A stretch of 64,000 nucleotides of DNA, from the NCBI GenBank assembly GCA_949358305.1, contig OX442314.1:55809369-55873368 (forward strand), in the 5' to 3' direction. This document shows, in pieces, positions 33,939-63,764 of the stretch (positions are counted from its first letter, which is position 1; each line of letters begins with the position of its first letter). The translations under genes were made by a program, and so were the position numbers. The notes below the pieces were generated by a model. It made no database searches. It was not told where the DNA came from and saw only the letters and a program-made list of their open reading frames with translations. The DNA comes from Strigamia acuminata. Lineage: Eukaryota; Arthropoda; Chilopoda; Geophilomorpha; Linotaeniidae.

Positions 33939-34187
33939 ATGCCATCAGGAACGCCATCTAAGGGTAAAACAGCTGATATGAATATGGCTACGTTTAAACC
34001 AGCTGGCGGAATTCACATTGTTGGCACTGTGATGGCAGAACAGTCGAAGATACCGGCATTCGTCAAATCGCTGAAAAACATTTCAGGAATAATAAAAGAA
34101 GTTGTTATTTGTTTTTCACAATTCTCGTTGCCAATTTGTCAGTGTGCGTTTTGCAAACTGTGGATCGGATATTACCTTACATGGATA
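33939..34187 (+). pseudogene. DEG/ENaC channel exon-1 remnant
   Basis: From ATG 33939 the frame reads through a segment nearly identical to exon 1 of the minus-strand channel gene at 54 kb: VGTVMAEQSKIPAFVKSLK here, VGTVMAEQSETPAFVQSLK there. After one frame change near 34070, a second frame gives the first transmembrane segment and beyond (ANLSVCVLQTVDRILPYMD against TNLAMCVYQTADRILHYLD). It stops where the tail of a SINE begins. This is a piece of a duplicated channel gene, broken by a frameshift and a SINE insertion. Confidence 0.75.
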
Positions 34188-34502
34188 AAAAAATAAATAA
34201 AAATAAATAAAAATAATAAATAAAAATAAATAAAAATAAGAAATAAAAATAAATAAAAATAAGAAATAAAAATAAATAAAAATAATAAATAAAAATAAAT
34301 AAAAATAATAAATAAAAATAAATAAAAATAATAAATAAAAATAAATAAAAATAATAAATAAGAATAAATAAAAATAATAAATAAAAATAAATAAAAAATA
34401 TTAGTAAAAATTTTCACAGACAATAGGATTTGAACCTGTGTGGAAAGATTTCTAATCCATTGCCTGAACCACTGGACCACCACGACAAACTATTATTGCT
34501 TT
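34187..34502 (-). mobile_element. tRNA-derived SINE with a long A+T repeat tail
   Basis: On the minus strand the head has an A-box-like 'tggtccagtggttcaggc' and a perfect B box GGTTCAAATCC (plus-strand 34426-34436), then a short body and a tail of about 215 bp made of (T)n-ATTT units (plus-strand 34187-34402, 'ataaataaaa' repeats). Two further copies are at 41578-41690 and 41800-41910. A real tRNA is excluded because the acceptor stem does not pair. Confidence 0.75.
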
Positions 34503-37039: not shown

Positions 37040-37142
37040 TCAGATGAAGTGTTCAACAAGAGCAAATATTGAGAGACCGGTCCAAATAGCAATAATCGAT
37101 CCGCTTTTGGCGAATAAAAAGGCTGCTTTTATCATTTTCATG
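37040..37142 (-). pseudogene. Second copy of the DEG/ENaC terminal exon end
   Basis: The minus-strand frame ends GSIIAIWTGLSIFALVEHFI and a stop, against GSIISIWTGLSIFALIQHLN at the end of the channel gene at 39779. It includes the G-L-S selectivity-filter triplet of the last transmembrane segment. Upstream of it the homology is lost, so it is an isolated exon end left by duplication. Confidence 0.65.
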
Positions 37143-39778: not shown

Positions 39779-42700
39779 TCAATTGAGATGTTGAATGAGA
39801 GCAAAGATTGAGAGACCGGTCCAAATGGAAATAATCGATCCAATTTGACACAACAATTTGACAATGCTAATTGTCTCTTCCTCTTTAATTATTTCTCGAA
39901 TGTCGCTTTCAACTTTAAATACATAGGTGTATTCATCACGATTAACGTGTTTTTTTACTTCAGGTATGAATATTGTCTCTTGACAGCGTTTCGAGCAGGA
40001 ACAGTGTGTGTGTGGATTCGTCTTGAATAGTGTCTCCAAATACATCGTGTGAGTGAGTTTAGCGGTTTCTTGAGTCGAGCACAGTGGTAGATTACTTTTC
40101 TCCATAAATGGCAATCTAACAATACGACAAGGCAATGTTTATGCATTAAGCCTAAGCTTACCATTTCCCCCCCGAATATAACAGCATACAACACCAACAC
40201 TATTGTATGTATGAAGTGCTGTTCTAATCGAATTATTGCAAAACATTTTAAAAGGCTGGTTTTTGAATAAATTTTCATTTATTAAATGTTTTGTTGTTTT
40301 CGGGGGAAGATGGTATAGTCTACGCAAGTTGATTGCAGGTTAACGTTCGAATCCTGTCAGGGAAACGCTATAGCCACAAAACACTGGCTGCCATAGTTAA
40401 TCAAGTTTGAAATAAAAGGATATTGTTGTCACTCGACAGCCAAAGGACAATGTTCAAGGGTTGACAAGTCCAGAAAGATGGCAATTGTATCTCATAACTA
40501 GTGTATTGTAAAACGCATATCCCGTATTTAGAGATGTTTGCATGGAGAAAAAACAATGTTTGCTAACTGCTAACCAGTGTTGTATCTCGTTCACCAAATC
40601 GCGAACTAGTTCTAGTTCACGTTCATCACCGTGTGAACTAGTTCTAGTTTGCGTTCACTACAAATTTTTTCAAAGTGAACTAAGTTCTAGTTCGCGAACT
40701 TGAACCAATAGCTCAGTTCACTTTTCAAAATTTTTTTTTAAATTAAAATTTTTTTTTCCACAATTTCATATTTGAATAAAACATTTATTTAATGTAAAAA
40801 ATGTACAAACACTTAAATAATTAAATTTATCATTGAAAGAATCAAGTTTTCGAAATTTTTGTCAGATAACAAGCTGCGCCTTGGAATTGCGACTAGGCTT
40901 GCAAAATATAGTACTTAAATATTACAACACTCAGCCTTGATTGGCACACAAAACGTCTAGTGGACGTATCATCAACATTTTCAAAATGTTGATGATACGT
41001 CCACGAGAAATGTCATTTCACAAAGTGAACGCGAACTTCGTTCACGTTCGCTTCAAAAAACGAACTTTGTTCGTTTTTTTCGTTCACTTATAAAAGTGAA
41101 CTAGTTCGCGATCTTCGTTCGCGAACTAACGAACTTAGTTCGCGTTCGATACAACACTGCTGCTAACCACATGTGTGTCATCTCGTTCGGAATAGTGTCT
41201 TCTACATTCTAAAGCTAACAAGGAGAGCACACGAATAAGATACTCACAGATTGTTGCAATATTAAACGTGAAGGATTGTTAAATCATGCTGAATGAGATC
41301 CTAAAATAATTTCATTCCATAAACAGCCAACAATGTAAACAATGAGCTGAAAGTTTGCACTATTTTGTCTGTGTATACATCCAATCTGAGCAATCAGGGC
41401 TGGTGTATGAATACTGTAAACAACAGTTGCTAGGTAAAAAATAGTTCCAAGATCCATGTTGAATTTTATCATTTCATATTCAATGATGTTATTTCATCAT
41501 TTGAGATTCAATGATGTCATGACATCAGAACTTTGTTCACCAACATGACTGCCTGCACGAAGACAATAATAGTTTGTTGTGGTGGTCCAGTGGTTAAGGC
41601 AATGGACTAGTATCTTTCCATACCGGTTCAAATCCTGGTGTGCGTGAAAATTTTTACTTTTATTTTTTATTTATTTTTAGCAGTCATTTTAATGTTTGTA
41701 ATTTTATACTCCGTACTTGTTTTCAGAAAATTTCAATTTTATTAATTTTAATTTTTTAACAAATATAAAATTACAAACATTAAATTTACTGCTAAAAATA
41801 AATAAAAAATAAAAGTAAAAATTTCCACACACACCAGGATTTGAACCTGTGTGGAAAGATTCCTAATACATTGCCTGAACCACTGGGCAACCACTACAAA
41901 CTATTATTGCTTTCCTGCAGGCAGTCATGTTGGTGAAATGAAATGACATCATTGAATATGAAATGATAAAATTCAACTTGAATCTTGGAACTATTTTTTA
42001 CCTAGCAACTGTTGTTTACATTATTCATACACTAGGCCTGATTGCTCAGATTGTATGTATACACAGACAAAATAGTGCAAACTTTCAGCTCATTGTTTAC
42101 TAGGGTTTCGGTACCGGGAAACCGGAGTACCGATTTCCCGGGAATCCCGGTGAGACATCACGGTACCGGGAACCGGGAAATTGGAGAAAAACCGGTTCCG
42201 TCAAAAATTTGTTGCTGAAACATCAATTTCGTCGGTCAAACGTTATATTTTGTAACTTTTCACTGATGAAAATGGCTATTTTTAACGAAAATTGGCTAAA
42301 AATAGCTAAAAATGGCCATTTGTAACGAAAAAATGGCTAAAAAATGGCCATTTTTAGCGAAAAAATAGCTAAAAAATGGCCATTTTTAACAAAAAATGCC
42401 TATTTTTGATGAAAAACGGCCATTCTTGATGAAAAACGGCCATTCTTGACAGAAAACGGCCATTCTTGACGAAAAACGGCTACTTTTGATGGAAAACAGC
42501 CATTTTTACCATGAAAAAAGGCTCAACATTGCTAAAAATGGCTATTTTTGACAAAAAACGGCCATATTTTGTCATTTTTCGTCGCTTGTCGCCTGACCTT
42601 TTTTGGTCCCGGGAGTACCGGCTATTTTGGTACCGGGAACTGGAAATTTTAAAAATACGGGAAAACAGAAACCTTATTGTTTACATTGTTGGCTGTTTAT

Positions 42701-45700
42701 GGAATGAAATTATTTTAGGATCTCATTCAGCATATGATATAACAATCTTTCACGTTTAATATTGCAACAATCTGTGAGTATCTTATTTGTGTGCTCTCTG
42801 TGTAAGTTCAAGTACAACATTTACTTGCATCGCATGTGGACTACTTTGTGTCAGCAAGGCGTATTGGCTGAAGCGCGTTATAATTTCCAGCGTCTTAGTT
42901 TGGTTAGTTTTAACACATGACGCATATGGATTAAAATACTTCAACTTGAATGCACGTGAATTAACGTGGCTTTCAAATTGGCAGCGCCCATCAACAATGA
43001 CTTGTGACGATGACTACCCGGGATAGGAATTATTGCTAAAAGAACAAGTGAAACTGCAGAGTGTGTATAAAGTGCAAAATAACGAAACGTTTATGTTTCT
43101 CAAAAACATAGAACATTTATTCGAGTTAGATAAAGTTATATAATAACTATGGCCGACAAATGGCCAGTAAAATACGAGTGTAACTAGCTATACAAACGAG
43201 TGGCTTAAAAGCCCTAAAAATAACGTTAACAGTTGTGTTCAGCCTTGAAATAAGAGTGTGTAAAGTTCTTATTTCGGGCGTAAAAGGTGTCGTCTGCAAT
43301 CGGTCTGATTGTCGTCTGCTTCGGTTTGGTTCTGTGTAACTAAATTATCCGAGGAATGCGGTTGTCTTTGCTGCATCGTCACAACTTTGGGTGACCATTG
43401 GTTTAAATATCTATTTGTAGATATTTACCAATTGGTCTATTTATGATTATCAAAATAACCATAAATAAAAGTTACTCAAAGTTAGACTTCGAATGAATAA
43501 ATTGCATACAGATAAATTGGTTTCCAACTTATCACGTACAGCAATTTGACTTCTGGATCCGTGGAAATATTAACAGGTAACTTATCGAAATAAGTTACAA
43601 GAATATTCGACCTTGGCTAAAAAACTCCTCAAAGTGACTTCGCAAACCATGATGGAGTTACAAATAACTCCAATCATGCAAAGTTATGAATTGAATTATT
43701 AAATTACAAATAATCTAATAATCAAACATAACTAAAACCTGTATAAATAAAATGATTATGAAAAGACCCTGTCGATTCTGTTGCACCAAAGTACAACCAG
43801 CCCAGAATTGAATCAATGGCGCTCACGTCAATCCAACATTAGGTTTGAATCTAATGTCTCGGCGGAAAAGGAATTGAGCACGGCATTTTACTGCACGTGC
43901 CCCTACAACGGAATGTTGGCATGAAGTACGGAAAGGGAATTGAGCACGGCATTTTACTGCACGTGCCCCTACAACGGAATGTTGGCATGAAGTACGGAAA
44001 AGGGTTGAGCACGGAATTTAATGCACGTGCCCCTACAACGGAATGTTGGCATGAAGTCAGGTAAGGGATTGAGCACGGAATTTAATGCACGTGCCCCTAC
44101 AACGGAATGTTGGCATGATGCGAAGCGAAGCGAAGCGTAGAATATGGGCTCAAGTAAGTATCAAACAGAAAACAAAAACAAGAGCGAGCTATTTCCGGTT
44201 TACACCGGGTTATATACTCAGAGAGAAGAATGAGTGGCCATTGCTCCAATAGGAACACTGGTCACTCAAAACTGTCCAATCCTAATAAATAGGAAGTGGA
44301 TACAGGAGACATAGTCTTCTACAAAGTCTGTCCCAGGAAGTGGATACGGAGGACACATTTGCAATTAAGGCTATTGTCTTAATTCAAAGTGTATCTTCAA
44401 ACACTGTGGGTGGTGAGGGGTGACTTAATCCTTTTGCCCAGGTGTTGTTATAATTTGTCCAAATCATAACACAACTGGAGGAATAAAGACTCAACTATAT
44501 CATACTAGTATGATATAATATCTAGGGATACCGTGGATTTATATAAAACCTTTGATTTTATATAAATATCACATAAATAACATGTATATTCGAATTTCCC
44601 GCCGAAATGGGAAATAGCGCCATCTATCGGTGAACTTGGGACTAAATATGACGTCATGACCGTCACAGACTTCAAAAAGTGGGCAGGGAAAAAATTGATA
44701 GAAAATAAAGAAAAGCTAACAAATAAAAGGAATTTTTAAAAACACAAAATACAAAATAAATAAATAAATAAACAAACTAATATTTTTTTAAAATTGCCTT
44801 TGTTTTGAATCAAAGGATTACGGTAGGTCAACTAGACAATCAGCCAGAGCCAATTTAGTATGCTTCAGTTTAATGGGCCGGGGGGATAGTTGAACTGCAG
44901 ACGCCTGTTATTCCCATATCTCCTGTCCACATGTCATAACCTCACAACTTTTGGTTTGGTGATGGTCGTTCAATTGGCGCCGATTAATTGTCCCCAAACC
45001 ACCCAGACTGCTTAAATGTGATACAATGCAAATTCTGTCACTTTCTTCCCTTTGTGGTGAATTCAAGTGATAGATAAGAGGAAACCAATGCGTTGGGATT
45101 GAGAACATACATACTGGCATTTGAATGGTTGCTCCTGCAGTTTGGCTCCGTAACATTTGGCTTCGCATGCTGAAACTCGCTCGTTTGTTGCACAAGGGCT
45201 TTTTGGAGTATTCACTCGAACCAACTAGAAAGAATTATTGTTTCAATGTTTCAATATCAGTGCGTTTTGTGTAAGCACACTCTACTCTGTGTAGCACAGA
45301 CATAGGACGGATCTCAGAAATATAGTCCAGTCTATATACCGTCTGGACAAATGACATACAGAGAATGTCCGGACTAGAGACGTAGAGAGAGTTAAAAAAG
45401 TAATCTTGCCTACATTAAAACAATTGGAAAATATACGCTAAAATCAGTTTGGATGCAAGAAGCAATACCAATGAATATAAACACCAGGATAAACGCCAGA
45501 TTCACAAAGGTTGAAAATCGAATTTTCCGCTAAGGGATATGTGCACATACGTCATGCACGTGCGCATAACGTGACGAACGTGCACATTACGTGACATATG
45601 CGCACATGACGTAATGGTACTTTAACGCAAATTTCGGTTTTCAACTTTTGTGAACCTGGCAATAAATTAATTCGTAATTTAATTATTTTTATAACTTTTT

Positions 45701-46215
45701 TCATTATAAAATCGATACGCTATTGTTTTTTGTCCGGACCATTCAGTGATTTTTCTCTATACGAGACGCATTGCTGAGTCCGGAGTCCGGAACAGAGAGC
45801 TGTCTGGACTGCGCTAAGTCTGGGCTACACAGAGTACATTTTACTATAAAAATAACCGATTGACGAGAAATGTGGACATGAATAAGATTCAAGTTTGATA
45901 GGTAGAAAATATATTTTGGGTGAAAGATTTGATTCTGCGGTAGAATGAAGCTCTAGAATAAATTAAATTAAATTAAATTAACCCAGTGGAATGGAAACGG
46001 AAAACACAAACGATCTTACTGCTAGATCCACTTTGATTTTGGGTTTGACGTAAGTTTCATCATCTAGTTCCTGAAATAAATTAAATTAAATTACCGGTAA
46101 CCTAGTGGAATGGAAACTGAGAACACAAACGATCTTACTGCTCGACTCACTTTCGTTAATTCAGTCATAGTTGGAAGCCTTAAAAACGGTTCTTTTGAAG
46201 AATATGGTTCATCAA
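39779..46215 (-). CDS. DEG/ENaC-family channel, second unit (distal exons)
   Basis: Four exons join in phase: 46215-46139 (phase 1 in), 46070-46020, 45224-45115 (ends phase 2) and 40115-39779 with the stop. They give a channel ectodomain (TELTKVSRA, KPKIKVDLA, VRVNTPKSPC), a cysteine region (ACEAKCYGAKLQEQPFKC), LPF...C...C-x-C-x3-C, and a last transmembrane segment with the filter triplet G-L-S (IWTGLSIFALI). The third and fourth exons match exons 5 and 6 of unit 1 in boundary phase and pattern (for example the PF-x4-NLP-x-C block). The protein ends two or three residues after the membrane segment. The exons that should connect 48769 to 46215 are not resolved, so a separate gene with its own start cannot be excluded. 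Confidence 0.65.
40575..41159. mobile_element. hAT-like MITE with 8-bp target duplication
   Basis: 585 bp in the last intron of the channel gene. The inverted ends CAGTGTTGTATC / GATACAACACTG are flanked by CTGCTAAC on both sides (40567-40574 and 41160-41167). The body is full of 'gaactagttc' and 'gttcacgttc' repeats near each end, and a near-perfect 43-bp palindrome lies at about 40972-41014. No transposase frame. Confidence 0.85.
41578..41690 (+). mobile_element. tRNA-derived SINE copy
   Basis: A-box-like 'tggtccagtggttaaggc' and B box GGTTCAAATCC (41625-41635), then 'gtgaaaatttttac' and a short T-rich tail. Confidence 0.7.
41800..41910 (-). mobile_element. tRNA-derived SINE copy, inverted partner
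   Basis: Mirror copy of the SINE at 41578. B box complement GGATTTGAACC at 41837-41847. Confidence 0.7.
42100..42675. mobile_element. hAT-like non-autonomous insertion with internal minisatellite
   Basis: Flanked by an 8-bp duplication ATTGTTTA (42092-42099 and 42676-42683). The ends are imperfect inverses: 'tagggtttcggtaccggg' on the left and, inverted, 'aaggtttctgttttcccg' on the right. The interior has many diverged copies of a 'ggccatttttaacgaaaaa' unit (42270-42560). The empty site is visible in the left arm of the inverted repeat. No transposase. Confidence 0.8.
43050..44680 (-). repeat. Long LTR-like segment in the last channel intron
   Basis: On the minus strand it begins TGTGACGGTCATGACG near 44675, shares blocks with the LTR-like segment at 6965-7520 ('agatggcgct', 'accggaaat') and includes AATAAA near 43115. 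It contains a four-fold tandem repeat at 43866-44117. The lower boundary is uncertain. No internal retroelement genes are next to it, so it may be a solo LTR. Confidence 0.35.
43866..44117. repeat. Four tandem copies of a 62-66-bp unit
   Basis: Each unit contains 'ttgagcacgg', 'gcacgtgcccctacaacgg' and 'aatgttggcatga'. The first two copies are nearly identical; the last two share 'aatttaatgc' in place of 'cattttactgc'. A GAAGC run follows. Confidence 0.85.
45285..45834. mobile_element. MITE with TA duplication, in a channel intron
   Basis: 550 bp bounded by TA. The inverted ends CTCTGTGTAGCACAGAC (left) and, inverted, CTCTGTGTAGCCCAGAC (right) match at all but one base. TA duplication is typical of Tc1/mariner-type MITEs. 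A second, smaller inverted repeat is nested at about 45498-45660 ('attcacaaaggttgaaaat' mirrored by 'ttttcaacttttgtgaa'). Confidence 0.75.
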
Positions 46216-48287
46216 CTGTAACAATTTAGGAGAGTAAAAAATAATAGTCGTGTTTTGTACACATTGTAAACCCAATTCTATTTTTAAAGGCTTTTATTTC
46301 ACTTGACATGACTGTGTGTTTCGAGGGGTTCGGCAACGGGTGGAATCTCATACACCCTGTGAGATTCACCCCGTGAGATTCACTTGAATCTTATGAAATC
46401 TGTTTGAATCTTCTACATTGATTCCAATTTAACTCGCCAGGGTTTGTACGTGGAGAACTGAATCCAACTAAATTTGCAATTTTTTTTTATTCTAAAATAC
46501 AAAATACAAAAGTGCAGTGACAAGTGAGCGGGTTTTCATCAAATTCACAAAGGAAATAATAGAAAAAGCCAAAGTGAATTGATGAAAAACTAAATTGTTG
46601 TTTTTATCATATTGTAATTGTTATACGGCATCAGTTCCAATTTTCTCCCCTTTTCACATTTTACACCGTTGTCTTAAGTGTTTAATCCAAGATTCAGCTT
46701 AAACCTGCGAACTTGTCAACTGATGACGTCATGCTTTGGATTTTGGGCAACTGGTTTTGTCGCGCGCATTGTAATTGTTGTTACATATCATAACTAGAAC
46801 AATTTAGTTTTTCATCAAATAACTTTGGGTTTAGTAACGTGCGTAATGGGTTACGAATTTGGATCGCTATAGAGTATAGATGGTTACCATCATGGTGTAC
46901 ATTAGAGTAGGGATTTTAGAGATAAAACCTCAGCACAGAATAAAGAATTTTCACTCCCAAGATTTTGCAATAGTACATTGTTAGGTTTTCACCAAGATGG
47001 CGGCACACTACAAGTTTTTATATTGTTTCCTTTGATAATTTCATGAAAACCCACTCAGTGCACTTGACCTTTAAATTTGAAGGAAAATTATTTCCAATAA
47101 CTGTAATTCTCTATGAAATTCTAGAAAATTCACATTTTTTGGTGTCCAGGAAATATTTAACGATCTATTTTTCCTATTCACTTATTTTTCCAGGTACACA
47201 GCCTTTTTTTCTTTACACTTTTTGCAAGGTTTTTTCTGCAACTTATCTACCACGTAAAAACAGAATTAGGTCTACTGTTTTTGTTTCTACCTATTGTATA
47301 ATTACTGCAGACTCCAAATACTGTTGAAACACATGTGCTATTGAACTACAAAAAAATCTTGTAAGTGAAAAGCAATCCTACAATCAATCTACAGCAAAAT
47401 TGCAAAATTTGCAAAATTACAAAAGAATACACTAAAATGAAATCTGGATAAGCTTTGATTTGTTATCGTACACTAAAACATTTCTGTAATAAAACAATTT
47501 TTTGACTATAAAGTTTTTATGCAAAAAAGTCCGTTTTTTGCTGTTACAGACACCAACTCATTAATTTACAGACTACTCTGTTAAACTAATAAATCTGTAA
47601 ATTTCTAGTGGTGTTTATCACTAGCAGATCAAGCAAATTTGTATCAATATATTAATCGTGAGGAGTGAGTCTCTTTGTATGTGTACGTGTTTGTGTATGT
47701 CTGACCTCTATCTTTTCCGAAACCAGTGGACAGATTTCGAATTTGAAAAGTGCAATGGACAGATCTCGATACCAAGAGGAGGTGGATACTGGATAGGCTA
47801 CTTTTCACATTCATCGCATTCATATTAATTCTAATAGTATTAATATTTATTGGAGTGTTCTTCACTCCAATGCACGTCACATGTATCTTGTTAATTTGTG
47901 ACATTGCCTTTCGGCAGCGCCACCTGTATGTTTCTTTGAATAAACTAGTCAGTTATGTAAATCTCAGCAGCACCAACGGTTACGTTATTTTACATGCTCC
48001 ATTGCAATTTTAATATTTAGTCAAGACAGACTATTTATATTCACGTTAATACTACTTTTTGGATTAAACGCATCAAATTAAAGATTAAGCTAACCACAAG
48101 CTTAGGAGCGAACCTCGCAATGCCACAACATAACCAATAACAATGCGCTCTGATACAGTTCTTACTTCTCTCACCACAGACCAACACTGGTATCAAACAC
48201 ACAAACAAACATCAACAACAACTCCCAACGCCACTCTTGCTGGGATGCAGTCTACGTTGCTGCATAGTACTATACAATTTTTAACAC
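46216..48287. other. Channel intron region, some exons probably missed
   Basis: Between the fusion exon and the first resolved unit-2 exon the gene must contain further short exons encoding about 80-100 residues, but I could not place them with consistent phase. The ORFs at 47043-47327 (+) and 47644-47904 (-) show no channel character. Confidence 0.4.
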
Positions 48288-48753: not shown

Positions 48754-49516
48754 TTAAATTTCACTTACATCGGCTGCAGAAATATTACACTCTGAGGCGG
48801 CTTTCCATAATTTGAGTGAATCGTTTGCGAATTTAGTTGACGGATGGAGTAAGTCAAACAGCTGGAAACGACGAGCATCAATTTTCTGTCGTTCAACGAA
48901 ATCCTCTTTAGCTTTTAATATTTCCTGAGTTTCTTTACAAAGGATAACGAGTGGATGATGAATTTTTTTGTCTCTCACGAGAGTAATCGTTTTGGCGAGT
49001 GGATAATCAAAGTAAGAATTAATTGAAATGTACATTTGGTGAATGGAGATAAAAATTAGGAATAGCAACACGACAATTTTCAATTTACTTCTTTTGTCGG
49101 GCGTTTTCTGCTTTTCTTTTAGTATTTCTTGAATTTTATCTCGCAACTGGCGATCTTTGCTTTGCCTTTTTTCGTACACAATTAGAAACATTTTGCAGCA
49201 GTGAAGAAATATTTCGACGAGCATTAAACATGACATTCCAAAATATAGTCCAATGTTTCCGCCAATGTCACATAGTAAAGTGATTACGTCGTAAGAATGT
49301 CGTTCTTGCAATGTCCGAACGTAATTATTCACAACAGATATTTCAAAAATAGTCTCCTCAGAATGAGGTAATCGATAAGAGTAGATGCTGAGTTGTGTCA
49401 CTTTACATACACCAAGACATTTACACTTGCGGTAAGCTACTTGCCACTCGTCATATTGTTTTCGTAGATAAGTGTCATTGCATTCTGGTAGGTTTCGTGC
49501 ATTATGAAACGGATAT
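48754..49516 (-). CDS. Fusion exon: end of channel unit 1 and start of unit 2
   Basis: One uninterrupted exon frame (748 bp to the donor at 48768, stop at 48754 if unspliced). After transmembrane segment 2 (GLYFGMSCLMLVEIF) comes a charged linker of about 38 residues (KRQSKDRQLRDKIQ, KEKQKTPDKRSK), then a new hydrophobic segment (IVVLLFLIFISIHQMYI, about residues 401-421), then YFDYP and HHPLVILCKE. The last two correspond to the Y..YP and FPAVTIC signatures that follow the first transmembrane segment in DEG/ENaC proteins. GAT|GTAAGT at the end is a strong donor in phase 0. No stop or splice site separates the two units, so the linkage is read straight from the sequence. Confidence 0.8.
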
Positions 49517-52500
49517 CTGAAATCGAAATTAGTGTTCCTTCAGTGTGTTCAGTAACTATTGTGATCAAAGAAGTTAATGAACAACACACGGCTTTAGTAT
49601 TTGTGAGTCTCGAGCGAACGATTCGTTTGTTAAACTAAATAGACTGCCTTAGTCTTTTTACAAGCCGGGTTGTACACCCAGATAACCCCTAGTCGTCTTA
49701 CCGACGTAACATGTGGAAGGGGGGACGAGGGCGAGATGTGCCCCATAATAGTAAACACAGGTGCGATGTGGAGCTGAGGGAAAAGTCTTTAGTTGGCTGT
49801 ACGGAGGCTCACAGTATTATTAATTACAACGTTTAAATAAACAGCCTATCTGGATATTGTTTGATTAGAACTAAAAGTATACCTGCAAGTTATAACTCTC
49901 ATGAGACAATGCAGCAAACATCCCAGTAAATTGTCATCGCAAGGATTTCGCTTAATGTTGATGAAGTGATACTGAAAAAAACATCCTCCAGTTAAATTCA
50001 GATGCAATAATTTCAAGAACATGTGAAATAAGAGAAATTAGTATCCTAAGCGGCACTGAATCATACACAGTAATAATGTATCTTTGATGTGTTTTGCAAT
50101 TCAGATTCTGAAAACGGTGTAGTTTAACGGATCTTTAAATTTTTTATTTGCCTTTTGGTTATTATAATTCATTTACTTTTTGTATTTAATTTGCAATTTC
50201 TAAAGTCTTTAAATATGTATTTTGTGTTTATGTGCAAAATTGTTCGATTTTATATTATTGAAACTATTGCATTTATTGTGTTTTTTTTTATTTCATTTGT
50301 TTTAAATATTGCAGACGATATTTTACTTGATACATTTGTGTTGGTTTTACTTTCACCCAAATTGGGGTCTGTGACCCCGGAAACCCTTCCAAGTTTGGAA
50401 TGTGTGTCTATTTTTAATTGTACCCACCTGTTGGATTTGACTCTGTTGAACCAATAGGAGAGTCTGTTGTATATATGTAAACCCTACTATTTGAATTGAG
50501 AAATAGTGTCAGATTTGACACAGATATCCAAGTAACATCCGAAGGAATATTCGGGGCCAAATTTTGCATGAATATGACAAAGATTTGAATCTGGTTCACT
50601 CTAACGAAGACATTTTAACGACTACATTTTAGCGACTACATTTTAACGACTACATTTTAGCGACTACATTTTAACGACTACATTTTAGCGACTACATTTT
50701 AACGACTACATTTTAGCGACTACATTTTAGCGACGCCGCAATAGCTAAAATGACCCGAGCACTAAAGTGAACATTGATAAAAATCTTATATAAAAATCTG
50801 ATAAATATAATCAAAATTATCCCAAAATCTAATAAATTAAATCAAAATTATCCCAAAATCTAATAAATTAAATCAAAACTATCACAAAATCTAATAAATT
50901 TAAGCAAAAATATCCCAAAATATGTCAAAGTGCATCAAATTTTTTTAAACACTAATCACAAAATTCTGAAATTTATCCAAATCCACTTGTTAGTCAACCT
51001 GTCATAAACAACATAGCTCGTGTAACCTTAACCCTCAAACCCATCCAACAAGCAATTAGAAAATAAATGATTGACATAAAATGCAAATCCCAAAAAATTA
51101 CTCCATATTTGAATATGACAGCTTAATCTTGGCTGACAACACAATACCCCAAAAATCATAACCAAAAATTCCTGTCCCGTTCTCGCAATCCCCTACAAAA
51201 CCTCAAAAACGTCACTAAAACGAAATGTGCTGAACAAATTTTTCGGTTGACCTGTCGGGCGTCGTAAAAAAACTGACCAATTTTGGCTTTTGTTGCTAAA
51301 AATGCATTCCCTAAAGTAAACTAATCCGAAAATTTTGCCCAAATTAGACAAAGTTTTGCACAATAATTTTGGATGTCTTATTTCATAAAGGTCTTGAAAC
51401 TCTTTCTTACTTGTTGAACATTAACTTTATAAACATATTTTTGGCGCAGTCTCAACACATAACCTTTGCCATCATAGTTGATTTGTGAATGATCAATAAA
51501 TACCTGAAAAATCAGAGAACAAGTGCACCAGTTATTTAGACTGAATTGAATTTATAAACAACATTTAACACAGCATTTGCTTTGCCAGTGTGTTGATACA
51601 AATACAATTATTAAGAGGTCATCTCAGCCAATTGCGGGAGTCGAAATGGATATTGTGGCCTGCTCAAAGTGGATTAATTCTTAGTTGAAGAACTCTAATG
51701 TGATCTTTACATAAAAGGATCAAGTTATTGGGCCTGTAATCTGTTTATCCTATTTCTTTGATTCTAAAGGTGCATTTTTGGCAACCGCACGCGATTTTTT
51801 AAAAGCTGTCGTGATCCGATTTTAATGGGAAATAAAATGATTTACCCTTGGTACTGAAAATAAAATGATTTACCTTGGTACCGGAAATAAAAGGATTAAT
51901 GAAATAACTATTTCATAAAAATGATTTTAAGTTTAATGATAGTTCTTTATTTGCATAAAAATAGCTAATTATTAAATGGGGTCTCGAGTCCGTAAGTGGC
52001 GGACACGGTGAGATGCTGAATGCTGAATTACAATCCAGTCTTCTATTCTGGGCTCATTGTTTGTCTAGGAGTGTTTTGGTATTGTAGTGATCCTAAATTG
52101 TGTATCATAAATTCTCTTCATTAGACTGCGGGTCTTTATTTAAACAGTCGGAATGGGAAATCCTAAATGGGTCATTATTTATTTATTTATTTATTAATGT
52201 CTATGTCACACTCAAGGAGTAAAGGTTACAGGACATTCACCAGTTTGTTGGAAATATCCCAACCCAGTTATACAATTGTTATAACAATGCACCTCTTTCA
52301 AGTTAATTTTGGCTGAAACAATGCCGATTTCCGTACAAAAATGTAGTTTTAGCAGTAGTAAATGAACTTGAAAAGGGCGCATTGTTATAACAATTTTATT
52401 GTTAAAACATTACTGATACAATTCAATATTCAATAAAAACACTTGTAATGAGATTTAAACAATTTTTGAAATAAAACAACTGTGACTGTTTGGCCACCCT

Positions 52501-54099
52501 AGTGGCCTACGTCACTCCACACACCGTCTGGTGACCCCAAGCCGTCCCCCTCACATAGGAGTGGACCGGCCTAGCAGGGGAGGTACGAGCAGAGTGGTGT
52601 GGTGAGAGAGAGACGTTGTGAGGACAGCCGAGAGTGAGGACGTGTCTGGCTTGAGCTGCCACGGTCCGAACGCAGGCAGAGACAACTGCCGACTCTGCTG
52701 CTCTCACCATTCACCACTCTGACGATTAGTGGCAGATCCGGGATGATTGCTGCAGTACCGTGAGCGGCTACATGGGTCGTACAGGTGAGTACGACAGAAT
52801 GTTCGTCCATCGCAACCGACCACGTCACTCGTGGGGCCTCCGCCCTGTGTGTGGCAGGTCGGACACCGGTGTAGCGTGCCTACTGGCACCAACGTATAGT
52901 AAGATAGGTGACCCAACCCCTAGACAACTGATTAAAGGCCAAACGCAACAATCTGAGTCTCCTGTCATGTTATTACGTGACTTATGCGTTCCTCCCGCTC
53001 AGTAATTCCCCATACTGCGCGGGTAAGACCATAGCCCAGTCACACAACTAAAACTAAACACAAAATAAAATTATTAATAAAAATCATTAAATCGAAATCT
53101 GGATTTTACAGATGTGAAACTAAATACAAAATAACAAATTGATTGTACATTAAATGTGAAATAAGCTTCAAGTTTGGACAATTCTGAATCAAGTTTGAAA
53201 GAATTTACAATAAATTTTTTATTGTAAAATTGGTCTATCTGATAATGCGCGGATCTCTAACAAAACATGAGTGGGGACTTTATTCTGCCAATAGTGCGCA
53301 GGTACACAATGAGGGGATTTACGCTTGTCTAAATTATTTCACATTGGCCTACCTTAACGTACCAGCATTTTGCTGGGAATTTTAGTTTGATTACCATCTT
53401 GTAATTTAAATTTCCATATGGGAATCGCAAAGCTAAATGAAAATGAATTCACAAATAATGAATGTGTATAAGATTTTTCTTGGTGTTTTTACTTACCACT
53501 TGAAACTTGAGCAGTAGGCCAATAAATATTATCATAATTTTGAATTGTCAGATTAATGCGTGATTTTCCCTGGAAGGAATTGCTCAATTATTGATAAATA
53601 GAATGAAAGAGAAAGGGAGCTTTACCATTGCATAGTGTGCATCAGTTATGTAACTAGGTACAATCTGATATTTCACAATGTCCGTCCATTTTAAATGTTG
53701 TTGGTAGTTTAACCAATTACAATGTTCGACTGTGTACTTACTGCCAAGCAATATTGTTAACATATTGTTAAGTTCCTGTGTTGCATCTGGGCTAATATAA
53801 ACATTTGGGAAAAGACCATGGGTTGTTTCAATCAAGTATGCATCAGTTGCTGTTGGCTCATCCAGGTAATGCAATATTCGATCTGCAGTTTGGTACACAC
53901 ACATTGCAAGATTGGTAATGAGTAATGTGATAAATAGATAAGATGTGTATTTTTTCTTGATTGAAATGTTTTTCAGTGATTGGACGAATGCCGGTGTCTC
54001 TGATTGCTCTGCCATGACGGTGCCAACAATGCGTTGCAATTTTCTTTGCCCGAGTTGTTGAATTCGGCCAAACGTTCGATTCGATTTGTTGTTGTCCAT
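48769..54099 (-). CDS. DEG/ENaC-family sodium channel, first unit of a tandem gene
   Basis: Six exons join in phase: 54099-53626, 53569-53497, 53432-53395, 51503-51411, 49971-49883 and 49516-48769, 505 codons in total. Each donor is GTAAG, GTAA or GTAT type and each acceptor has a pyrimidine tract and AG. The protein has a cytoplasmic start (1-50), transmembrane segment 1 (about 51-70), a small ectodomain with a C-x6-C-x3-C pattern in exon 5 and PF...C...C-x-C-x3-C in exon 6, and transmembrane segment 2 (about 336-362) with the filter triplet G-M-S at 349-351. These are hallmarks of DEG/ENaC/ASIC channels, trimeric plasma-membrane sodium channels. The usual cytoplasmic His-Gly gating pair is not evident. 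Instead of ending after segment 2, the frame continues into a second unit. Confidence 0.8.
50606..50740. repeat. Minisatellite of a 14-bp unit
   Basis: About nine direct copies of 'gactacattttaRc' alternating A and G at one position, in an intron of the channel gene. It is followed by an inverse 'gctaaaatg' at about 50741. A second tandem array (33-bp unit, 'cccaaaatctaataaatt') lies at about 50800-50930. Confidence 0.85.
52273..52400. repeat. Short inverted repeat, possible MITE
   Basis: Left 'ttgttataacaatgcacctc' and right inverse 'ttgttataacaatgcgccct' about 130 bp apart. The ends are themselves palindromic (TTGTTATAACAA). The target duplication is not clear. Confidence 0.5.
52490..52960 (+). 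repeat. Dispersed repeat, plus-oriented copy inside the channel gene
   Basis: A GC-rich block in the long intron after exon 3. It is the inverse of 54180-54780 in ordered pieces: 'gagcggctacatggg', 'cgaccacgtca', 'cccctagacaa'. Another fragment lies at 515-700. It may be an LTR or other retroelement part. ORFs over it are not conserved. Confidence 0.6.
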
Positions 54100-58275: not shown

Positions 58276-61041
58276 TCACTTCTTTCCTGGGGGACCCGAC
58301 ACTGAGTCCGTCACCTGGGCGTAACTCACTCCAGGGACAGGCGGTTGAGTGCCGGGTGGCGCGGGTAGATCGCCTACTAACGCCGAGGACCGATCTCGGG
58401 GGTCCTCATGCTCCGTAATGAAGCATAATGCATGGCCGTCAACTGGCTCATGCGGGGCACGCGTCCTCTCGTGTAACCAAACGCTCGGGATGTAGGCGGA
58501 GAAGCCGGTGTTCGTATGCCGGATGGCATTGGCTTCCGCTGGCGTCACTGGCACACGGTGGGCTCTCAGCAACCTCTGGTGGAAGATGAGGTCTCTAGTC
58601 TTCCGGATCTGGTTGTGAAGCCAGATGAAGACTGATTTGCCTTTATCCCGTTGTGCGAGGATAAACCTCCTGGTCGCCGTTGTCATCGAAAGATGGGGAA
58701 ACTCTTCGATGATTCGCCCGTAATAGTCTGGTGGAGGCGGTGCCGGCTTCGGCTTCTGGGTGGCCGCGGGAATCACGGCTTGCGTCGTTGTCGCCGCTCG
58801 GGCCGGTGGGGTCCCGGGCGGTGTCGGCTTCGTTTGCTCGACGGACCTGACGGGTGGCGTTCGGCACAGTAAGCGCTTTGGCTTACCCGCCACTTCGAAC
58901 AGGGCGGGTCCTTGCGGGGATATCTCCGCAGGCATCGGTGGCGGAATCGGAACTCCGCTCGTCGGCGAGATCACCATGTCTACATCCTCTGCCGATTCTT
59001 CCGTCTGGATGGTCAAGGCGCGCAGTTGTTGGGTAGGCGCCGCTGTCCAGGTGGCGGAGGTATAGCGAAACGCCGTGCTTCGCAACTTGTACCCCTCAAA
59101 TTCGGGGTTTACCACATCCCTGGTTAGCTCGTACCGAGTCAACACAGGGTCGGGCAGAATGGAGCTCCACTCTGCGAGGAGTGCACGGGGAACCTGTACA
59201 CCCTCTCTGTCCACGACAGACCATGCGGCCATCGCCTGACGCCCTTCTCCGAAGAGTGCTGGGGTTAGCAGCTGCATCATGACCTTGGTCAATGATAGCT
59301 GTAGGCTGCGACGATTCACTGGATTCGATCGCTCCGAATCCGCAGTGAAGGCACACGAGAGCTTACTCATCATCGCCGTTGCCCATTCGATGAAATATCG
59401 CTGGGCCTGGTCCACACCTCGCAAGGCGGGTGCGGAGACTCTTGGGTCTTCCATCACGAAGCGGAACGCTGAGAGCTCGGAGATAGTCGGGTTGGCGGCT
59501 TCTCTCGCGAGTCGCGCTTCTTCGTCTCGCCTCTCGAAAAACAGGGCCGAGGAACCGGGTCGGGGTTGGCTCGGCCTGTAAATGCCGGTCAAATTGGCTC
59601 GACATTCCTGCGCAATGCTCTGTCCAACGGGGAGAGGGACTGAGCGGTCGGTGTGCAAATCCGGCGGATCGCTCGAATTTAACAACGACGGCGGCGGCAG
59701 GTTCGGAGGCGGCTGCGTCTTGGTCGGCAGCGTTGGCGTCGGCAGCGGTGGTGTTGGCTGCGTCGGCGGTGGTGGCGTCTCCGTCGTCTGCACCCCAGTC
59801 ATTGCGACTTGGGGCGCCGGGAGATGTTGTCCGGAGCCCGAAGGCTGCACGATGGCGGTTGGCGTGCCATCGGGTCGTGGTCGCGAATTTATGTAGTCTG
59901 CGAGCCACCTTGCCACCTCGTGTGGGGTCACCTTCCCGTCGGTGACAACACCCATCTTCCTGGCGTGTTTCATCGCGGGATCGAAACGTGTCAGTTTCGT
60001 CCGCTTCATCTGAGTCAGAATCTCGCGAAGGTCCCGCGTATCTGCCGCTGGGACGCTTCGCTCACCTGACTGGCTACCACTTCGTCGACCCGCTCTCTTG
60101 GAGACGTAGGCGGGTTCGGGGATGGGACGGCCCCGAGCTTCGCACCTCGCGAAGTATCGCTCTTTGCGATCTTTTTTCCGCTGCTCGCGATGAGTCAGCG
60201 GACGTCTAGAAGTGCTGGGACGAGAGACTCGCTCTTCGTCACCAGACATCCAAACCTCCTTGTACTCCTTACCGTCTTTAATCTGACGGTTTACGAAAAT
60301 TCGCGGTCGGGAATACTGCGAAGGGTCACGCACCGTACTGGTGGATGGCCCAGCTTCGTTGCCTTCAGTCGTGTTTTGAGTGACACGCTGTCTCTTGGTT
60401 GTCGCTGGGGAACGCGACTGGCTGTCCCCGGCGCCTTTGGAGCGCTTGCGCTTCCGCGGGTAGCTGCTCTTGGGCCCCAAAATCCCCAGGTAGTGGAGCT
60501 GCCACATCTCGGCTTGGGATGTTAAAATTCCCATCCGAGGTCTCCACTGGGGCGTACTCTCTCCCAATCGCAGCCTCTCAAACCACAGATGAATATCATC
60601 CGCGGTCATCCCCTCGTTTTGGAGGATGCGCTCGGCCACTGCCGTAGCGGTATCCACCAGCTGTTGTCTATAATGCTGATAGATGGCCTCACGGGCCTCT
60701 TCTGTCTCGGCTGCTCGCCACGCATGCAGCACGTGTTCCTCCGCCGGGTTGCCAGTGTACTGACTTGACAATCCGGGGTGGAAAATTGGCGATTTCGGGT
60801 CATCGTCACGAGCTAACTCTGTGGCGATGCCTTCGCGCATTCCCTCCGGGAACGTATCCAGGAGCGTGCAGTCTCGTACCCAACGTCGGGCGATGCATCG
60901 GGAATGTAGTATTCGCAGGCGCCAAGGGTCGGCGTCTTCGCCGAAACATCGTCGGTAAAAATCGGGCAGCGCGCCTCGAAATATCCCGCCACGAGTGATG
61001 CAAGCGGGGTCTAATGGTCCCCATGTTCTACGTAATGCCAT
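58276..61041 (-). CDS. Gypsy-2 third gene, conserved ORF of unknown function
   Basis: An intact 921-codon frame from ATG 61041, directly after an excellent acceptor (a 'tttctccacccttccag' tract on the minus strand). The N-terminal domain (about 1-190) and C-terminal domain (about 780-900) match the Gypsy-1 third gene. The middle is proline-rich and charged (basic 190-370, PPP/TPP-rich 430-470), with a conserved helical block around residues 530-670. There are few cysteines and no signal peptide or membrane helix, so it is unlike envelope glycoproteins. It resembles no Gag, protease or nuclease that I know. The product may be a nucleic-acid or host-interaction protein, but that is only a guess. 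It is probably expressed from a spliced RNA that uses the acidic exon at 61887-61976. Confidence 0.8.
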   Translation of the reverse strand: MALRRTWGPLDPACITRGGIFRGALPDFYRRCFGEDADPWRLRILHSRCIARRWVRDCTLLDTFPEGMREGIATELARDDDPKSPIFHPGLSSQYTGNPAEEHVLHAWRAAETEEAREAIYQHYRQQLVDTATAVAERILQNEGMTADDIHLWFERLRLGESTPQWRPRMGILTSQAEMWQLHYLGILGPKSSYPRKRKRSKGAGDSQSRSPATTKRQRVTQNTTEGNEAGPSTSTVRDPSQYSRPRIFVNRQIKDGKEYKEVWMSGDEERVSRPSTSRRPLTHREQRKKDRKERYFARCEARGRPIPEPAYVSKRAGRRSGSQSGERSVPAADTRDLREILTQMKRTKLTRFDPAMKHARKMGVVTDGKVTPHEVARWLADYINSRPRPDGTPTAIVQPSGSGQHLPAPQVAMTGVQTTETPPPPTQPTPPLPTPTLPTKTQPPPNLPPPSLLNSSDPPDLHTDRSVPLPVGQSIAQECRANLTGIYRPSQPRPGSSALFFERRDEEARLAREAANPTISELSAFRFVMEDPRVSAPALRGVDQAQRYFIEWATAMMSKLSCAFTADSERSNPVNRRSLQLSLTKVMMQLLTPALFGEGRQAMAAWSVVDREGVQVPRALLAEWSSILPDPVLTRYELTRDVVNPEFEGYKLRSTAFRYTSATWTAAPTQQLRALTIQTEESAEDVDMVISPTSGVPIPPPMPAEISPQGPALFEVAGKPKRLLCRTPPVRSVEQTKPTPPGTPPARAATTTQAVIPAATQKPKPAPPPPDYYGRIIEEFPHLSMTTATRRFILAQRDKGKSVFIWLHNQIRKTRDLIFHQRLLRAHRVPVTPAEANAIRHTNTGFSAYIPSVWLHERTRAPHEPVDGHALCFITEHEDPRDRSSALVGDLPAPPGTQPPVPGVSYAQVTDSVSGPPGKK

Positions 61042-62444
61042 CTGGAAGGGTGGAGAAATAAACGATTAATAAAAAGTTAATATTAAATACGTAGATAAAT
61101 GGTTGGTTTCGAGGGACGTTGCCGATACGTGCAGCCGTCCGTCGAGACCGATTCCTGTCTATCGGTGCAAACGTAGGACGAATTGTCCCTCGTCGGATAG
61201 AAAAAGAGAAGTCATCACGTAAAAATCTGTCTCATGTCCAAAACGCACAGCGAGACGAAATCGAGCCTTTAATCTGGATTCTTATCATCAGATTTTACTT
61301 CAAATTAATTCTAACATTAATTAGGACATTACTAATAATTAAATTAATAATTATCAGTCATTCGTAAAAAGAATTCGTCGGGTGTAAATTATTACTAAAA
61401 TTGCACAATAAATGTGCTTGTCGAAATTTTATTAAATAAATAAACCTAATAAAGAATTATTCCGAAGTCGGACTTTGTCTAATTTTTTTTAAAAAAGTTA
61501 AAGTCAAATTAAATTCATCCAACACACCGAAAAATTCATCGTACGAATGTTAAGTTGCATCAATTTGATGCGTCAAATTACTTGTGGAGAAAAATATTCT
61601 TTTACAGAATATTCTCCCCTTGTCATAAAATTATTTATGGCTCGAGCCCATTGTCTCGCTCGTGACTCAAGTCATGAGGAATTTTCGAGACGCGAGGCGA
61701 CGTGAAGTCTGCGCTCGCACCCCGAAAACAAATTAACAAGGAAAAAATACGATCGTGTGAGCGATCGCGGTTAATAATTAATTATACACTATTTCGAGTG
61801 CAAAGCACTCATGTCAGGTATTAGTCAACAAAGTTTCTCTTTCAGCAGCACGGAAATAATTCTCATGTGCCGATGCCGACTTCTACCTGATCGGGTTGGA
61901 CTTGGTTTACATCGCGGTCCCAGTTTTCCTCGTCATCGTGCTCGATGGCAAGCACGTCGTTCTCTTCCTCGTCCATGGCGAGGAGCGCGCACAAAAAGCT
62001 CAATCACGATTGAAAAAAGGATGATAAAACTATCTCAAAAAAAAACTCGGTAAAACGTTAAAAACGAGGATCACGCACGAATGCAGCGATCAGCTGTGAA
62101 AAGCGGAAGTCCGTGTGAACACGAGGTAATCGCGATGGATTCTGGGTAATATACTCCAGAACCCGGGTGTTTGAGACTAGTGCGCACCTACCCGTGCGCA
62201 TGTTACGCTACGGGTCTCCTTTGTTCTCACTCCCGTGCGCGATTGCTGCTACGGGGTCTTTTGCACGCGGTATCCGACCCGTGCCGATAATTTTGCTACG
62301 GGTCCCGCGTTTCCACGCCATCTTGGACGCGAATTCGACCGATATCCGCTTTGTTGGACTTAGCGAAATTTTCTGCGACGTGATGGCTTGCACTATCGGT
62401 CGATTACATTTATTTTTAGTGCCGCCATCGACTCGTAATTTATT
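61042..62444 (-). other. Gypsy-2 spacer between pol and the third gene
   Basis: About 1.4 kb, AT-rich apart from the acidic exon at 61863-61976. In Gypsy-1 the spacer is only about 0.6 kb. Apart from that exon I see no coding signal. Confidence 0.5.
61863..61976 (-). CDS. Short acidic exon upstream of the Gypsy-2 third gene
   Basis: ATG at 61976 opens 30 acidic codons (MDEEENDVLAIEHDDEEN), then CAG|GTAGAA, a donor in phase 0. The downstream acceptor at 61042 is also phase 0, so splicing would put this exon in frame with the third gene. Unspliced, the frame ends at 61863. A similar exon is present in Gypsy-1 at 27326. Confidence 0.6.
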   Translation of the reverse strand: MDEEENDVLAIEHDDEENWDRDVNQVQPDQVEVGIGT

Positions 62445-63548
62445 TTACTTTTTTCCTACGACCTTTCCGCCTTTTATAAACGGATTATCTCTTTTTGGTC
62501 GCAGGTTACGGATCGAGGCAGGTACGATATTTTTTGTTGTTTTTTGTTTCTGTACCTCCTCATTATTGTTTTCTTTTTTATCCGTGTTTTTTGTGTTTGT
62601 TTCAGGAGTTTCTCCTGTTTCCCCCCCGACCAAAATTGGATCCGGAACGGATTCAACTATCTCGTTTACCGGAGGTGAAGGGGCGTCGAAATACTCCTCG
62701 TTGTCACTTGGCGGTGCTTTTTCCAACTCGCCAGCGAACATATCGACGATTTGGCCGTCAGTTTTAGACTTGACTTGGCCTTTGGCCCACATTTCTTGCG
62801 GGAATTCCGGAATGTACGGAGTTAACTCTCGTACTTGTATCGACTTATGCTCGGTGTTGTCCTCGAGCTTGCGTAATTTATACGCGTTACCGCCATGCTT
62901 GCCGATGATCACATACGGACCATCTCTCTTGTCGGCCAAGCTGGCGGTGATTCCTCTCGCTGCATTTGAGAGGATGTGTGTGTCCTTCCACACTAAATCA
63001 TTGTTCTCGAAATTCACAAATTTTCCACCGCTTTTATCTTGTAAAATGCGGTCGCGCATGTTAAAAATGTGCGCCATCATATGTTTGTATGTGCTCGAAA
63101 TTGTTTGCTCCAATTTATACACATACTCATGTGGTTTCTCTGGGTCCACCACATTTACCGACTCTGCCACTCGTGGGTCCCAAGGCACTCGTAGCTCTCG
63201 GGCGAAGTTGAGGTAGGCCGGAGAAAAATCTCTCGTCCTCGAGACTGTTGTTCGTATGCTGAATGCGATCTCCCTCAAGTATTCATCCCACCTATTGTGG
63301 ATGTCAGTGAATATGCTTAGTGCATATTTAATGTCCCTGTTGAGTCGCTCAACGGGATTTGTTCTGGGATTGTAGGTCGAAGTATGTGACGCCACAATCC
63401 CGAATTTCTCACAAAACTTACCCCAAATTTTCGAGATAAATTGGGGTCCGTTATCGGATATTATTTTACGTGGAAATCCGTAACGTAACGCCACGTCGTA
63501 GATACATTCAACGATTTTCTCTGCTGAAGGTCTAGCGACGGCGTACAA
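62445..63548 (-). CDS. pol: Gypsy-2 pol, C-terminal part of integrase
   Basis: The frame enters from the assembly gap. It shows the second catalytic aspartate in SDNGPQF, the catalytic glutamate in NPVERLNRDIKYAL, FARELRVPWDPR, a GPY/F module (RDGPYVIIGKHGGNAYKL) and a charged tail ending NPFIKGGKVVGKK. All parts align with Gypsy-1 pol (NPFIKDGKITGRT at its end). Protease, RT and RNase H lie beyond the window. Confidence 0.9.
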   Translation of the reverse strand: MYAVARPSAEKIVECIYDVALRYGFPRKIISDNGPQFISKIWGKFCEKFGIVASHTSTYNPRTNPVERLNRDIKYALSIFTDIHNRWDEYLREIAFSIRTTVSRTRDFSPAYLNFARELRVPWDPRVAESVNVVDPEKPHEYVYKLEQTISSTYKHMMAHIFNMRDRILQDKSGGKFVNFENNDLVWKDTHILSNAARGITASLADKRDGPYVIIGKHGGNAYKLRKLEDNTEHKSIQVRELTPYIPEFPQEMWAKGQVKSKTDGQIVDMFAGELEKAPPSDNEEYFDAPSPPVNEIVESVPDPILVGGETGETPETNTKNTDKKENNNEEVQKQKTTKNIVPASIRNLRPKRDNPFIKGGKVVGKK

Positions 63549-63550
63549 CT

Positions 63551-63750: not shown

Positions 63751-63764
63751 CCGACGGCCCGTAC

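What the first reader, a model, noticed from the sequence alone, without database searches (positions are those of the whole stretch)
48754..54099. A DEG/ENaC channel gene that continues into a second channel unit
Exon 6 (49516-48769) is one uninterrupted frame. It encodes the last transmembrane segment of one DEG/ENaC unit (filter triplet G-M-S), a 38-residue charged linker, then a new first transmembrane segment followed by the Y..YP and HHPLVILCKE signatures that follow segment 1 in this family. DEG/ENaC subunits normally have two membrane segments and assemble as trimers. A natural tandem subunit would fix stoichiometry. I do not know of a described case. The five upstream exons join it in phase without a stop.
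Basis: partly seen in the sequence, partly recalled or inferred. Interest (0 to 1): 0.87.

Follow-up and report, generated by a model that had tools for sequence, protein, structure and literature searches.

The report
Naturally fused double sodium-channel subunit
A gene from what looks like a centipede encodes two sodium-channel subunits joined end to end in one protein, although channels of this family are normally built from three separate subunits.

Summary
Exon 6 (49516-48769, minus) runs in one frame from the pore helix of a first DEG/ENaC unit, through a basic linker, into the first membrane helix of a second unit. The second unit is also complete: six further exons, down to its own pore helix and stop at 39779, join in phase. 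The model has 12 exons, 760 residues and four membrane segments. Strigamia maritima (centipede) gene models tile residues 1-754 of the 756-residue version; of six found, five cover the unit 1 pore helix and all five continue into unit 2, four with the whole linker. The nearest solved proteins are BRTNaC1 and PDPNaC1, single-unit Scolopendra channels reported as trimers. Unit 1 keeps the canonical pore; unit 2 lacks the gate aspartate and glycine and stops nine residues after its filter. I read this as a natural tandem DEG/ENaC subunit lineage, a new variant of a known kind. Transcription, topology, assembly and current are inferred. The paper rows I saw describe no such protein.

The parts
53626..54099 (-). 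Exon 1 (phase out 0): start codon, N-terminus, unit 1 TM1 (about residues 51-72), start of extracellular domain 1
   Evidence: P0006 matches from residue 1, 50% over residues 1-264
53497..53569 (-). Exon 2 (phase out 1), unit 1 extracellular domain
   Evidence: GT-AG, in phase; covered by P0006
53353..53432 (-). Exon 3 (phase out 0), unit 1 extracellular domain
   Evidence: covered by P0006 and in part by P0002
51411..51503 (-). Exon 4 (phase out 0), unit 1 extracellular domain
   Evidence: covered by P0006 and P0002 with gaps: 18 residues fewer than P0006 in this stretch
49883..49971 (-). Exon 5 (phase out 2), unit 1 thumb cysteines C251, C258, C262, C269
   Evidence: P0002
48769..49516 (-). 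Exon 6 (phase out 0): end of unit 1 extracellular domain, TM2 with DIGGNIGLYFGMS, basic linker, unit 2 TM1, start of extracellular domain 2
   Evidence: Pfam ASC 1e-13; P0001-P0005, 45-52%
47291..47345 (-). Exon 7 (phase out 1), unit 2, about 18 residues
   Evidence: GT-AG, in phase; similarity to P0002, P0003 and P0004 weak on its own (E 1.2-6.6)
46139..46215 (-). Exon 8 (phase out 0), unit 2; an alternative donor after 46151 is also in frame
   Evidence: matched to P0003 by eye
46020..46070 (-). Exon 9 (phase out 0), 17 residues; its tail and intron duplicate the exon 8 tail and intron; skipping it keeps the frame
   Evidence: 79 columns at 87%, E 3e-25
45857..45952 (-). Exon 10 (phase out 0), unit 2; donor gttatt is non-consensus
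   Evidence: P0003 50% E 3e-7, P0004 51% E 3e-5
45115..45224 (-). Exon 11 (phase out 2), unit 2 thumb cysteines C623, C632, C636, C648
   Evidence: P0003 50% E 8e-8, P0004 47% E 6e-7
39779..40115 (-). Exon 12: end of unit 2 extracellular domain, TM2' with QIGSIISIWTGLS, stop nine residues after the filter
   Evidence: P0004 56% E 5e-35; exon 6 E 3e-5
37049..37117 (-). Relic of a unit 2 pore-helix end, 70% identical; not part of the model
   Evidence: E 5e-5
34017..34189 (+). Relic of exon 1 spread over two frames, next to an A/T-rich tandem array; not part of the model
   Evidence: E 8e-7 and 1e-6; array 34185-34411

Best explanation
The gene makes one membrane protein with two complete DEG/ENaC units in series. 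Shown at sequence level: one open frame over 12 exons, four hydrophobic segments, a basic linker between the units, both extracellular domains keeping the six cysteines that pair up in BRTNaC1, and the same junction in Strigamia relatives. Inferred topology: N-terminus, linker and C-terminus cytosolic, both large domains outside. Inferred mechanism: the two units take neighbouring places in a trimer and the third place is filled by another subunit, either a single-unit DEG/ENaC or unit 1 of a second tandem. Unit 1 supplies a canonical gate and filter; unit 2, which lacks the gate aspartate, the gate glycine and a cytosolic tail, supplies an asymmetric, probably modulatory position. Its nearest solved relatives are a heat- and acid-activated channel and a proton-gated channel of antennal neurons, both from centipedes, so a sensory role is the likeliest; this is inference from kinship. 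The confidence given is for the tandem-subunit reading as a whole; for the 2+1 arrangement within it I would say about 0.4. The first rival below shares the tandem reading, so the two are not exclusive.
For: The 12-exon model has 760 codons and no internal stop; all 11 introns are GT-AG. With a 19-residue window and my threshold of 1.4, only four regions qualify: about 51-72, 354-385, 412-437 and 726-755 (756-residue version). Strigamia: P0006 matches residues 1-264 at 50%, P0002 195-552, P0003 312-645, P0004 319-754. Five of five models that cover TM2 of unit 1 (P0001-P0005) run on into unit 2. Four of these five carry the whole linker; over the stretch from the end of TM2 to the start of extracellular domain 2 they have 41-44 identities in 89-92 aligned positions (45-48%) and 91-96 residues against 92 here. 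A profile of five unit sequences finds BRTNaC1 at 1.9e-20 and PDPNaC1 at 2.8e-14, from TM1 to TM2. Intron phases run 0,1,0,0,2 in unit 1 and 0,1,0,0,2 in unit 2 when duplicate exon 9 is set aside; two of these introns fall at the same aligned residue. Pore: unit 1 DIGGNIGLYFGMS; unit 2 QIGSIISIWTGLS here and NVGSIVGIMTGLS in P0004, to be held against gates Asp372 and Gly375 of PDPNaC1 (positions matched by counting from the filter).
Against: No transcript or protein evidence. The Strigamia models are automatic, each covers part of the protein, and none spans all four segments. The search that found the junction used a query that itself spans it, and candidates are limited by length, so single-unit relatives may have been missed. 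P0004 lacks the linker and the first part of TM1', which may be a model error or a real splice. Unit 1 TM1 only just passes the hydropathy threshold (1.45), and exon 1 alone scores below the Pfam cut-off (16.5 bits). Exon 10 has a non-consensus donor and intron 11 is 5 kb long; exons 7 and 8 rest on phase and weak similarity. Four relatives have a Met inside the linker at differing places, so a separate start for unit 2 is not excluded there; this gene has none in the linker. The structure prediction failed (mean pLDDT 35.9). Two units do not divide evenly into a trimer.
Confidence: 0.7

Rival explanations
1. Still a tandem protein, but unit 2 no longer takes a pore position. Three tandems meet through their unit 1 halves to form a normal trimer, and the three unit 2 halves sit at the edge as tethered regulatory domains.
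For: Unit 1 pore is canonical; unit 2 has lost the Asp and Gly gate residues and its chain ends nine residues after the filter, both here and in P0004.
Against: Unit 2 keeps a full DEG/ENaC domain with the six cysteines and a GLS filter, which suggests it still packs as a subunit.
Confidence: 0.3
2. The locus makes two separate proteins by alternative promoters, splicing or cleavage in the linker, so that the fused frame is rarely translated whole.
For: P0004 lacks the linker in its gene model; a GTAAAT donor-like site lies in the linker of exon 6; P0001, P0002, P0003 and P0005 have a Met in the linker; no RNA was available.
Against: No stop between the units; in this gene the last Met before TM1' is 379, inside hydrophobic segment 2, and the linker has none; the linker Mets of the relatives lie at differing places; linker length and sequence are kept in four relatives.
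Confidence: 0.15
3. This copy is a recently dead member of a real tandem family.
For: Broken relics of the same gene lie nearby (34017-34189, 37049-37117); the exon 10 donor is gttatt; exon 9 looks like a recent partial duplication.
Against: All 12 exons are open and in phase, and exons 6, 10, 11 and 12 keep 45-56% identity to the matching parts of Strigamia models.
Confidence: 0.12
4. Assembly artefact: two neighbouring genes joined in error.
For: The assembly has gaps (run of X in the frame 62445-63791).
Against: The junction lies inside one exon, and five gene models at 45-52% identity, so from other loci or another species, have it too.
Confidence: 0.03

Closest known systems
BRTNaC1, broad-range thermal receptor 1 of Scolopendra subspinipes mutilans (8ymr, 8ymw, 8ymx)
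   Same: DEG/ENaC; best match of the full protein (7.9e-13) and of the unit profile (1.9e-20); its six disulfide cysteines have counterparts in both units
   Different: One unit, 431-residue chain, trimer (passage); filter GIC; no second unit
PDPNaC1, proton-dissociation-permeated sodium channel of the same centipede (9jf7; PMC12714832)
   Same: Best solved match of unit 1 alone (1.2e-8); same gate and filter layout as unit 1
   Different: One unit of 421 residues with two membrane helices, homotrimer (abstract, part of section 6, sections 9 and 13 of the paper)
ASIC and ENaC subunits
   Same: Pfam ASC domain; TM2 DIGG...GxS motif
   Different: Single units (ASIC chains of 435-531 residues). 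Laboratory-made concatemers of such subunits are known to me from memory only
Two-pore-domain potassium channels, two-pore channels, four-domain sodium and calcium channels
   Same: Precedent for pore subunits fused in nature (recalled, no call)
   Different: Unrelated folds; there the repeat number divides the number of pore positions, here two units meet a trimer (recalled)

Membership tests
DEG/ENaC (Pfam ASC PF00858) | Profile match above the curated cut-off | tested here: met
   Whole protein 66.9 bits, linker plus unit 2 alone 33.8 bits, cut-off 23.6 (756-residue version); exon 1 alone 16.5 bits, below the cut-off
DEG/ENaC (Pfam ASC PF00858) | Two membrane helices per subunit (PMC9822975, passage) | tested here: not met
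   Four hydrophobic segments in one chain: two per unit, not two per polypeptide
DEG/ENaC (Pfam ASC PF00858) | Cysteines of the BRTNaC1 disulfides C273-C341, C282-C337, C299-C311 | tested here: met
   Pairs named in a passage (for a closed mutant); counterparts in both units by alignment
DEG/ENaC (Pfam ASC PF00858) | Pore gate Asp and Gly, GxS filter | tested here: inconclusive
   Unit 1 keeps all; unit 2 keeps GLS but has Q for Asp and S for Gly
DEG/ENaC (Pfam ASC PF00858) | His-Gly motif before TM1 (recalled) | tested here: not met
   By eye: unit 1 reads SLKNIS where I expect HG, the linker before unit 2 has no HG (sequence); whether BRTNaC1 or PDPNaC1 have it was not seen
DEG/ENaC (Pfam ASC PF00858) | Trimeric assembly | not testable with these tools
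   Needs expression and structure
Centipede BRTNaC1/PDPNaC1 group | Grouping in a tree | tested here: inconclusive
   Unit 2 with BRTNaC1 at 51/57 support only; 11 sequences of 54-152 residues, several partial

The most novel reading that the evidence does not exclude
Centipedes carry a multi-copy lineage of naturally concatenated DEG/ENaC subunits in which evolution has fixed which two units are neighbours in a trimeric channel and let the second unit's pore drift, giving obligately asymmetric (2+1) sensory channels.
Probability: 0.4. Interest if true: 0.88.

Novelty: new variant of a known kind. Interest (0 to 1): 0.74.

Why it matters
DEG/ENaC channels are taken as trimers of two-helix subunits (PMC9822975, passage). 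A natural two-unit chain poses a clear question of how two units fill three places, offers a ready-made concatemer for testing gating by position, and adds an odd member to a centipede group that already holds a heat receptor and a proton-gated channel.

Tried and rejected
Structure prediction of P0004 with six sequences gave mean pLDDT 35.9 and pTM 0.24 and was not used; no fold search was run and the second prediction job was not spent. The joined protein was not handed to the structure tool because its rule asks for proteins that the DNA gives letter for letter.

The window's own genome could not be searched: the genome search did not answer in 11 of 11 tries. Species and copy number stay open. 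The hits stop at 52% identity, so the window is either another centipede or a Strigamia locus without a UniRef model.

Duplication of one unit within the gene was considered because the intron phases match. The unrooted tree puts unit 1 sequences (99.6/99) and unit 2 sequences (100/100) apart, with BRTNaC1, PDPNaC1 and ASIC5 on the unit 2 side, so a fusion of two older paralogues is at least as likely. Simple readthrough was rejected because five relatives share the junction. A third unit was looked for with the 760-residue protein in the window: besides the model itself, the match of the two units to each other and the two relics, only two hits of E 0.5-0.6 turned up. One of the three frames (44908-45234) was a wrong frame and gave nothing. 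In alignment A4 exon 12 was laid against unit 1, so A3 was used for the prediction. One search (full protein; only lengths 0.55-1.75 of the query are candidates) returned P0002 alone, and (profile) P0004 and P0006.

Print: nine searches. The rows listed, 20 of 151, 20 of 38, 2 of 2, 20 of 267, 3 of 3, 12 of 13, 4 of 4, 15 of 16 and 2 of 2, showed no title or abstract about a two-unit DEG/ENaC protein. The rows were stem-cell transplant papers, drawn by the letters ASC. Preprints are not held. The main text of the Strigamia genome paper PMC4244043 has none of six channel terms.

Full report
What was checked. The open frame 49539-48754 has 261 codons and matches Pfam ASC at 1e-13. In 100 random sequences with the first-order make-up of about 33200-56000 the longest frame was 217 codons. 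One search, my first translation of exon 6, was in the wrong phase and should be ignored.

The gene is longer than reported. tblastn of exon 6 against the window found a second pore-helix exon at 40117-39791 minus, E 3e-5. With the Strigamia proteins as guides the remaining exons of unit 2 were found, exons 7 and 8 partly by eye, and the model was assembled by script: 12 exons from ATG 54099 to the stop ending at 39779, 11 introns all GT-AG, phases compatible, 760 residues. Exon 8 has two in-frame donors (after 46151 and after 46139); the second is preferred because it matches the donor of exon 9, and gives 760 residues in place of 756. Searches used the 756-residue version or its parts. The tail of exon 9 with its intron is a copy of the exon 8 tail and intron (79 columns, 87%), and skipping exon 9 leaves the frame open at 743 residues. 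Weak points: exon 10 has donor gttatt, and exon 7 has only weak similarity of its own (E 1.2-6.6).

Four membrane segments. With a 19-residue window and a threshold of 1.4, which I chose, only four regions qualify, at about 51-72, 354-385, 412-437 and 726-755; the first only just, at 1.45. The stretch 385-416 between segments 2 and 3 has 13 basic and 6 acidic residues of 32, which fits a cytosolic linker.

Relatives. A search with the exon 6 frame gave five proteins of 303 candidates, all named Strigamia maritima, 45-52% identical. A search with the full protein returned only P0002, and a profile of five unit sequences returned P0004 and one more, P0006. P0006 (residues 1-264), P0002 (195-552), P0003 (312-645) and P0004 (319-754) together tile residues 1-754 of 756. 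Of the six, five cover TM2 of unit 1 and all five continue into unit 2; the sixth, P0006, ends before TM2. Four of the five keep the whole linker: from the end of TM2 to the start of extracellular domain 2 they show 41-44 identities over 89-92 positions and 91-96 residues against 92. The fifth, P0004, lacks the linker and the first part of TM1'. All are automatic gene models and none spans all four segments. The query spans the junction, so single-unit relatives may have been missed.

Kinship with solved channels. The full protein, unit 1 and the unit profile all match BRTNaC1 and PDPNaC1 of the centipede Scolopendra best. From the paper on PDPNaC1 (PMC12714832; abstract, first of three parts of section 6, sections 9 and 13, and passages) it is a homotrimer of two-helix subunits with constrictions at Asp372 and Gly375. 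From passages of PMC12804983, BRTNaC1 is trimeric, heat- and proton-activated, and has disulfides C273-C341, C282-C337 and C299-C311 in a closed mutant. Both units here have cysteines at these places. That DEG/ENaC subunits have two membrane domains and that channels are complexes of three subunits is stated in the introduction of PMC9822975 (passage).

The two pores differ. Unit 1 reads DIGGNIGLYFGMS. Unit 2 reads QIGSIISIWTGLS here and NVGSIVGIMTGLS in P0004: the gate aspartate is Q or N and the gate glycine is S, and both proteins stop nine residues after the filter. The His-Gly motif before TM1, which I recall as typical of the family, is not seen in either unit.

Origin. Intron phases are 0,1,0,0,2 in unit 1 and, with exon 9 set aside, 0,1,0,0,2 in unit 2. 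Two introns fall at the same place: in both units the cysteine of N-P-C or S-P-C is the 11th residue after one of them, and the next splits the codon directly after the cysteine before x-P-F. Both units therefore probably descend from one gene structure. An unrooted tree of 11 short sequences separates unit 1 (99.6/99) from unit 2 (100/100) but does not resolve whether they are sisters or joined paralogues. By inference the fusion predates the split between this gene and its Strigamia relatives.

Reading. The best reading is a natural tandem DEG/ENaC subunit. Shown at sequence level: the frame, the four segments, the conserved junction, the kept cysteines and the divergent second pore. Inferred: one message, topology, assembly, a 2+1 trimer, a sensory role. 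The main rival for the mechanism is a trimer formed by unit 1 halves with unit 2 at the edge. Separate expression of the units is not excluded: this gene has no Met in the linker and its last Met before TM1' lies inside segment 2, but P0001, P0002, P0003 and P0005 have linker Mets at differing places, and a GTAAAT donor-like site lies in the linker. A dead copy and an assembly error are less likely but cannot be ruled out without RNA.

Novelty. In the rows seen of nine searches of the held library no two-unit DEG/ENaC protein is described, and the main text of the Strigamia genome paper has none of six channel terms. The library is partial, and protein databases may hold unremarked cases. I file it as a new variant of a known kind.

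Noticed in passing
34017-34189 + and 37049-37117 -: Broken pieces of another copy of the same channel gene (exon 1 in two frames; end of the unit 2 pore helix), which suggests that the family duplicates and decays locally.
   Followed up: partly
46215-45953 -: The tail of exon 9 and its intron look like a copy of the exon 8 tail and intron, a possible case of exon gain by short duplication.
   Followed up: partly
4804-5577, 8178-8573, 16274-17305, 32846-33556 +: Long single-frame C2H2 zinc-finger arrays of similar sequence; two of the four were scanned with Pfam, the other two judged by eye.
   Followed up: no
10230-12305 + and 13705-14172 +: Reverse transcriptase frame with a Dam-methyltransferase-like end (RVT_1 5e-16, Dam 7e-9), followed by a frame without Pfam match that looks to me, from memory, like a tyrosine recombinase: perhaps a DIRS-type element.
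   Followed up: no
22728-27074 +, 58279-61065 -, 62445-63791 -: Ty3-type pol frame (RVT_1, RNase H, rve); a 929-codon frame without Pfam match; and a gapped frame that looks by eye like the end of a second pol.
   Followed up: no
50602-50734: Tandem array of a 14-base unit, 9.5 copies, inside intron 4 of the channel gene.
   Followed up: no
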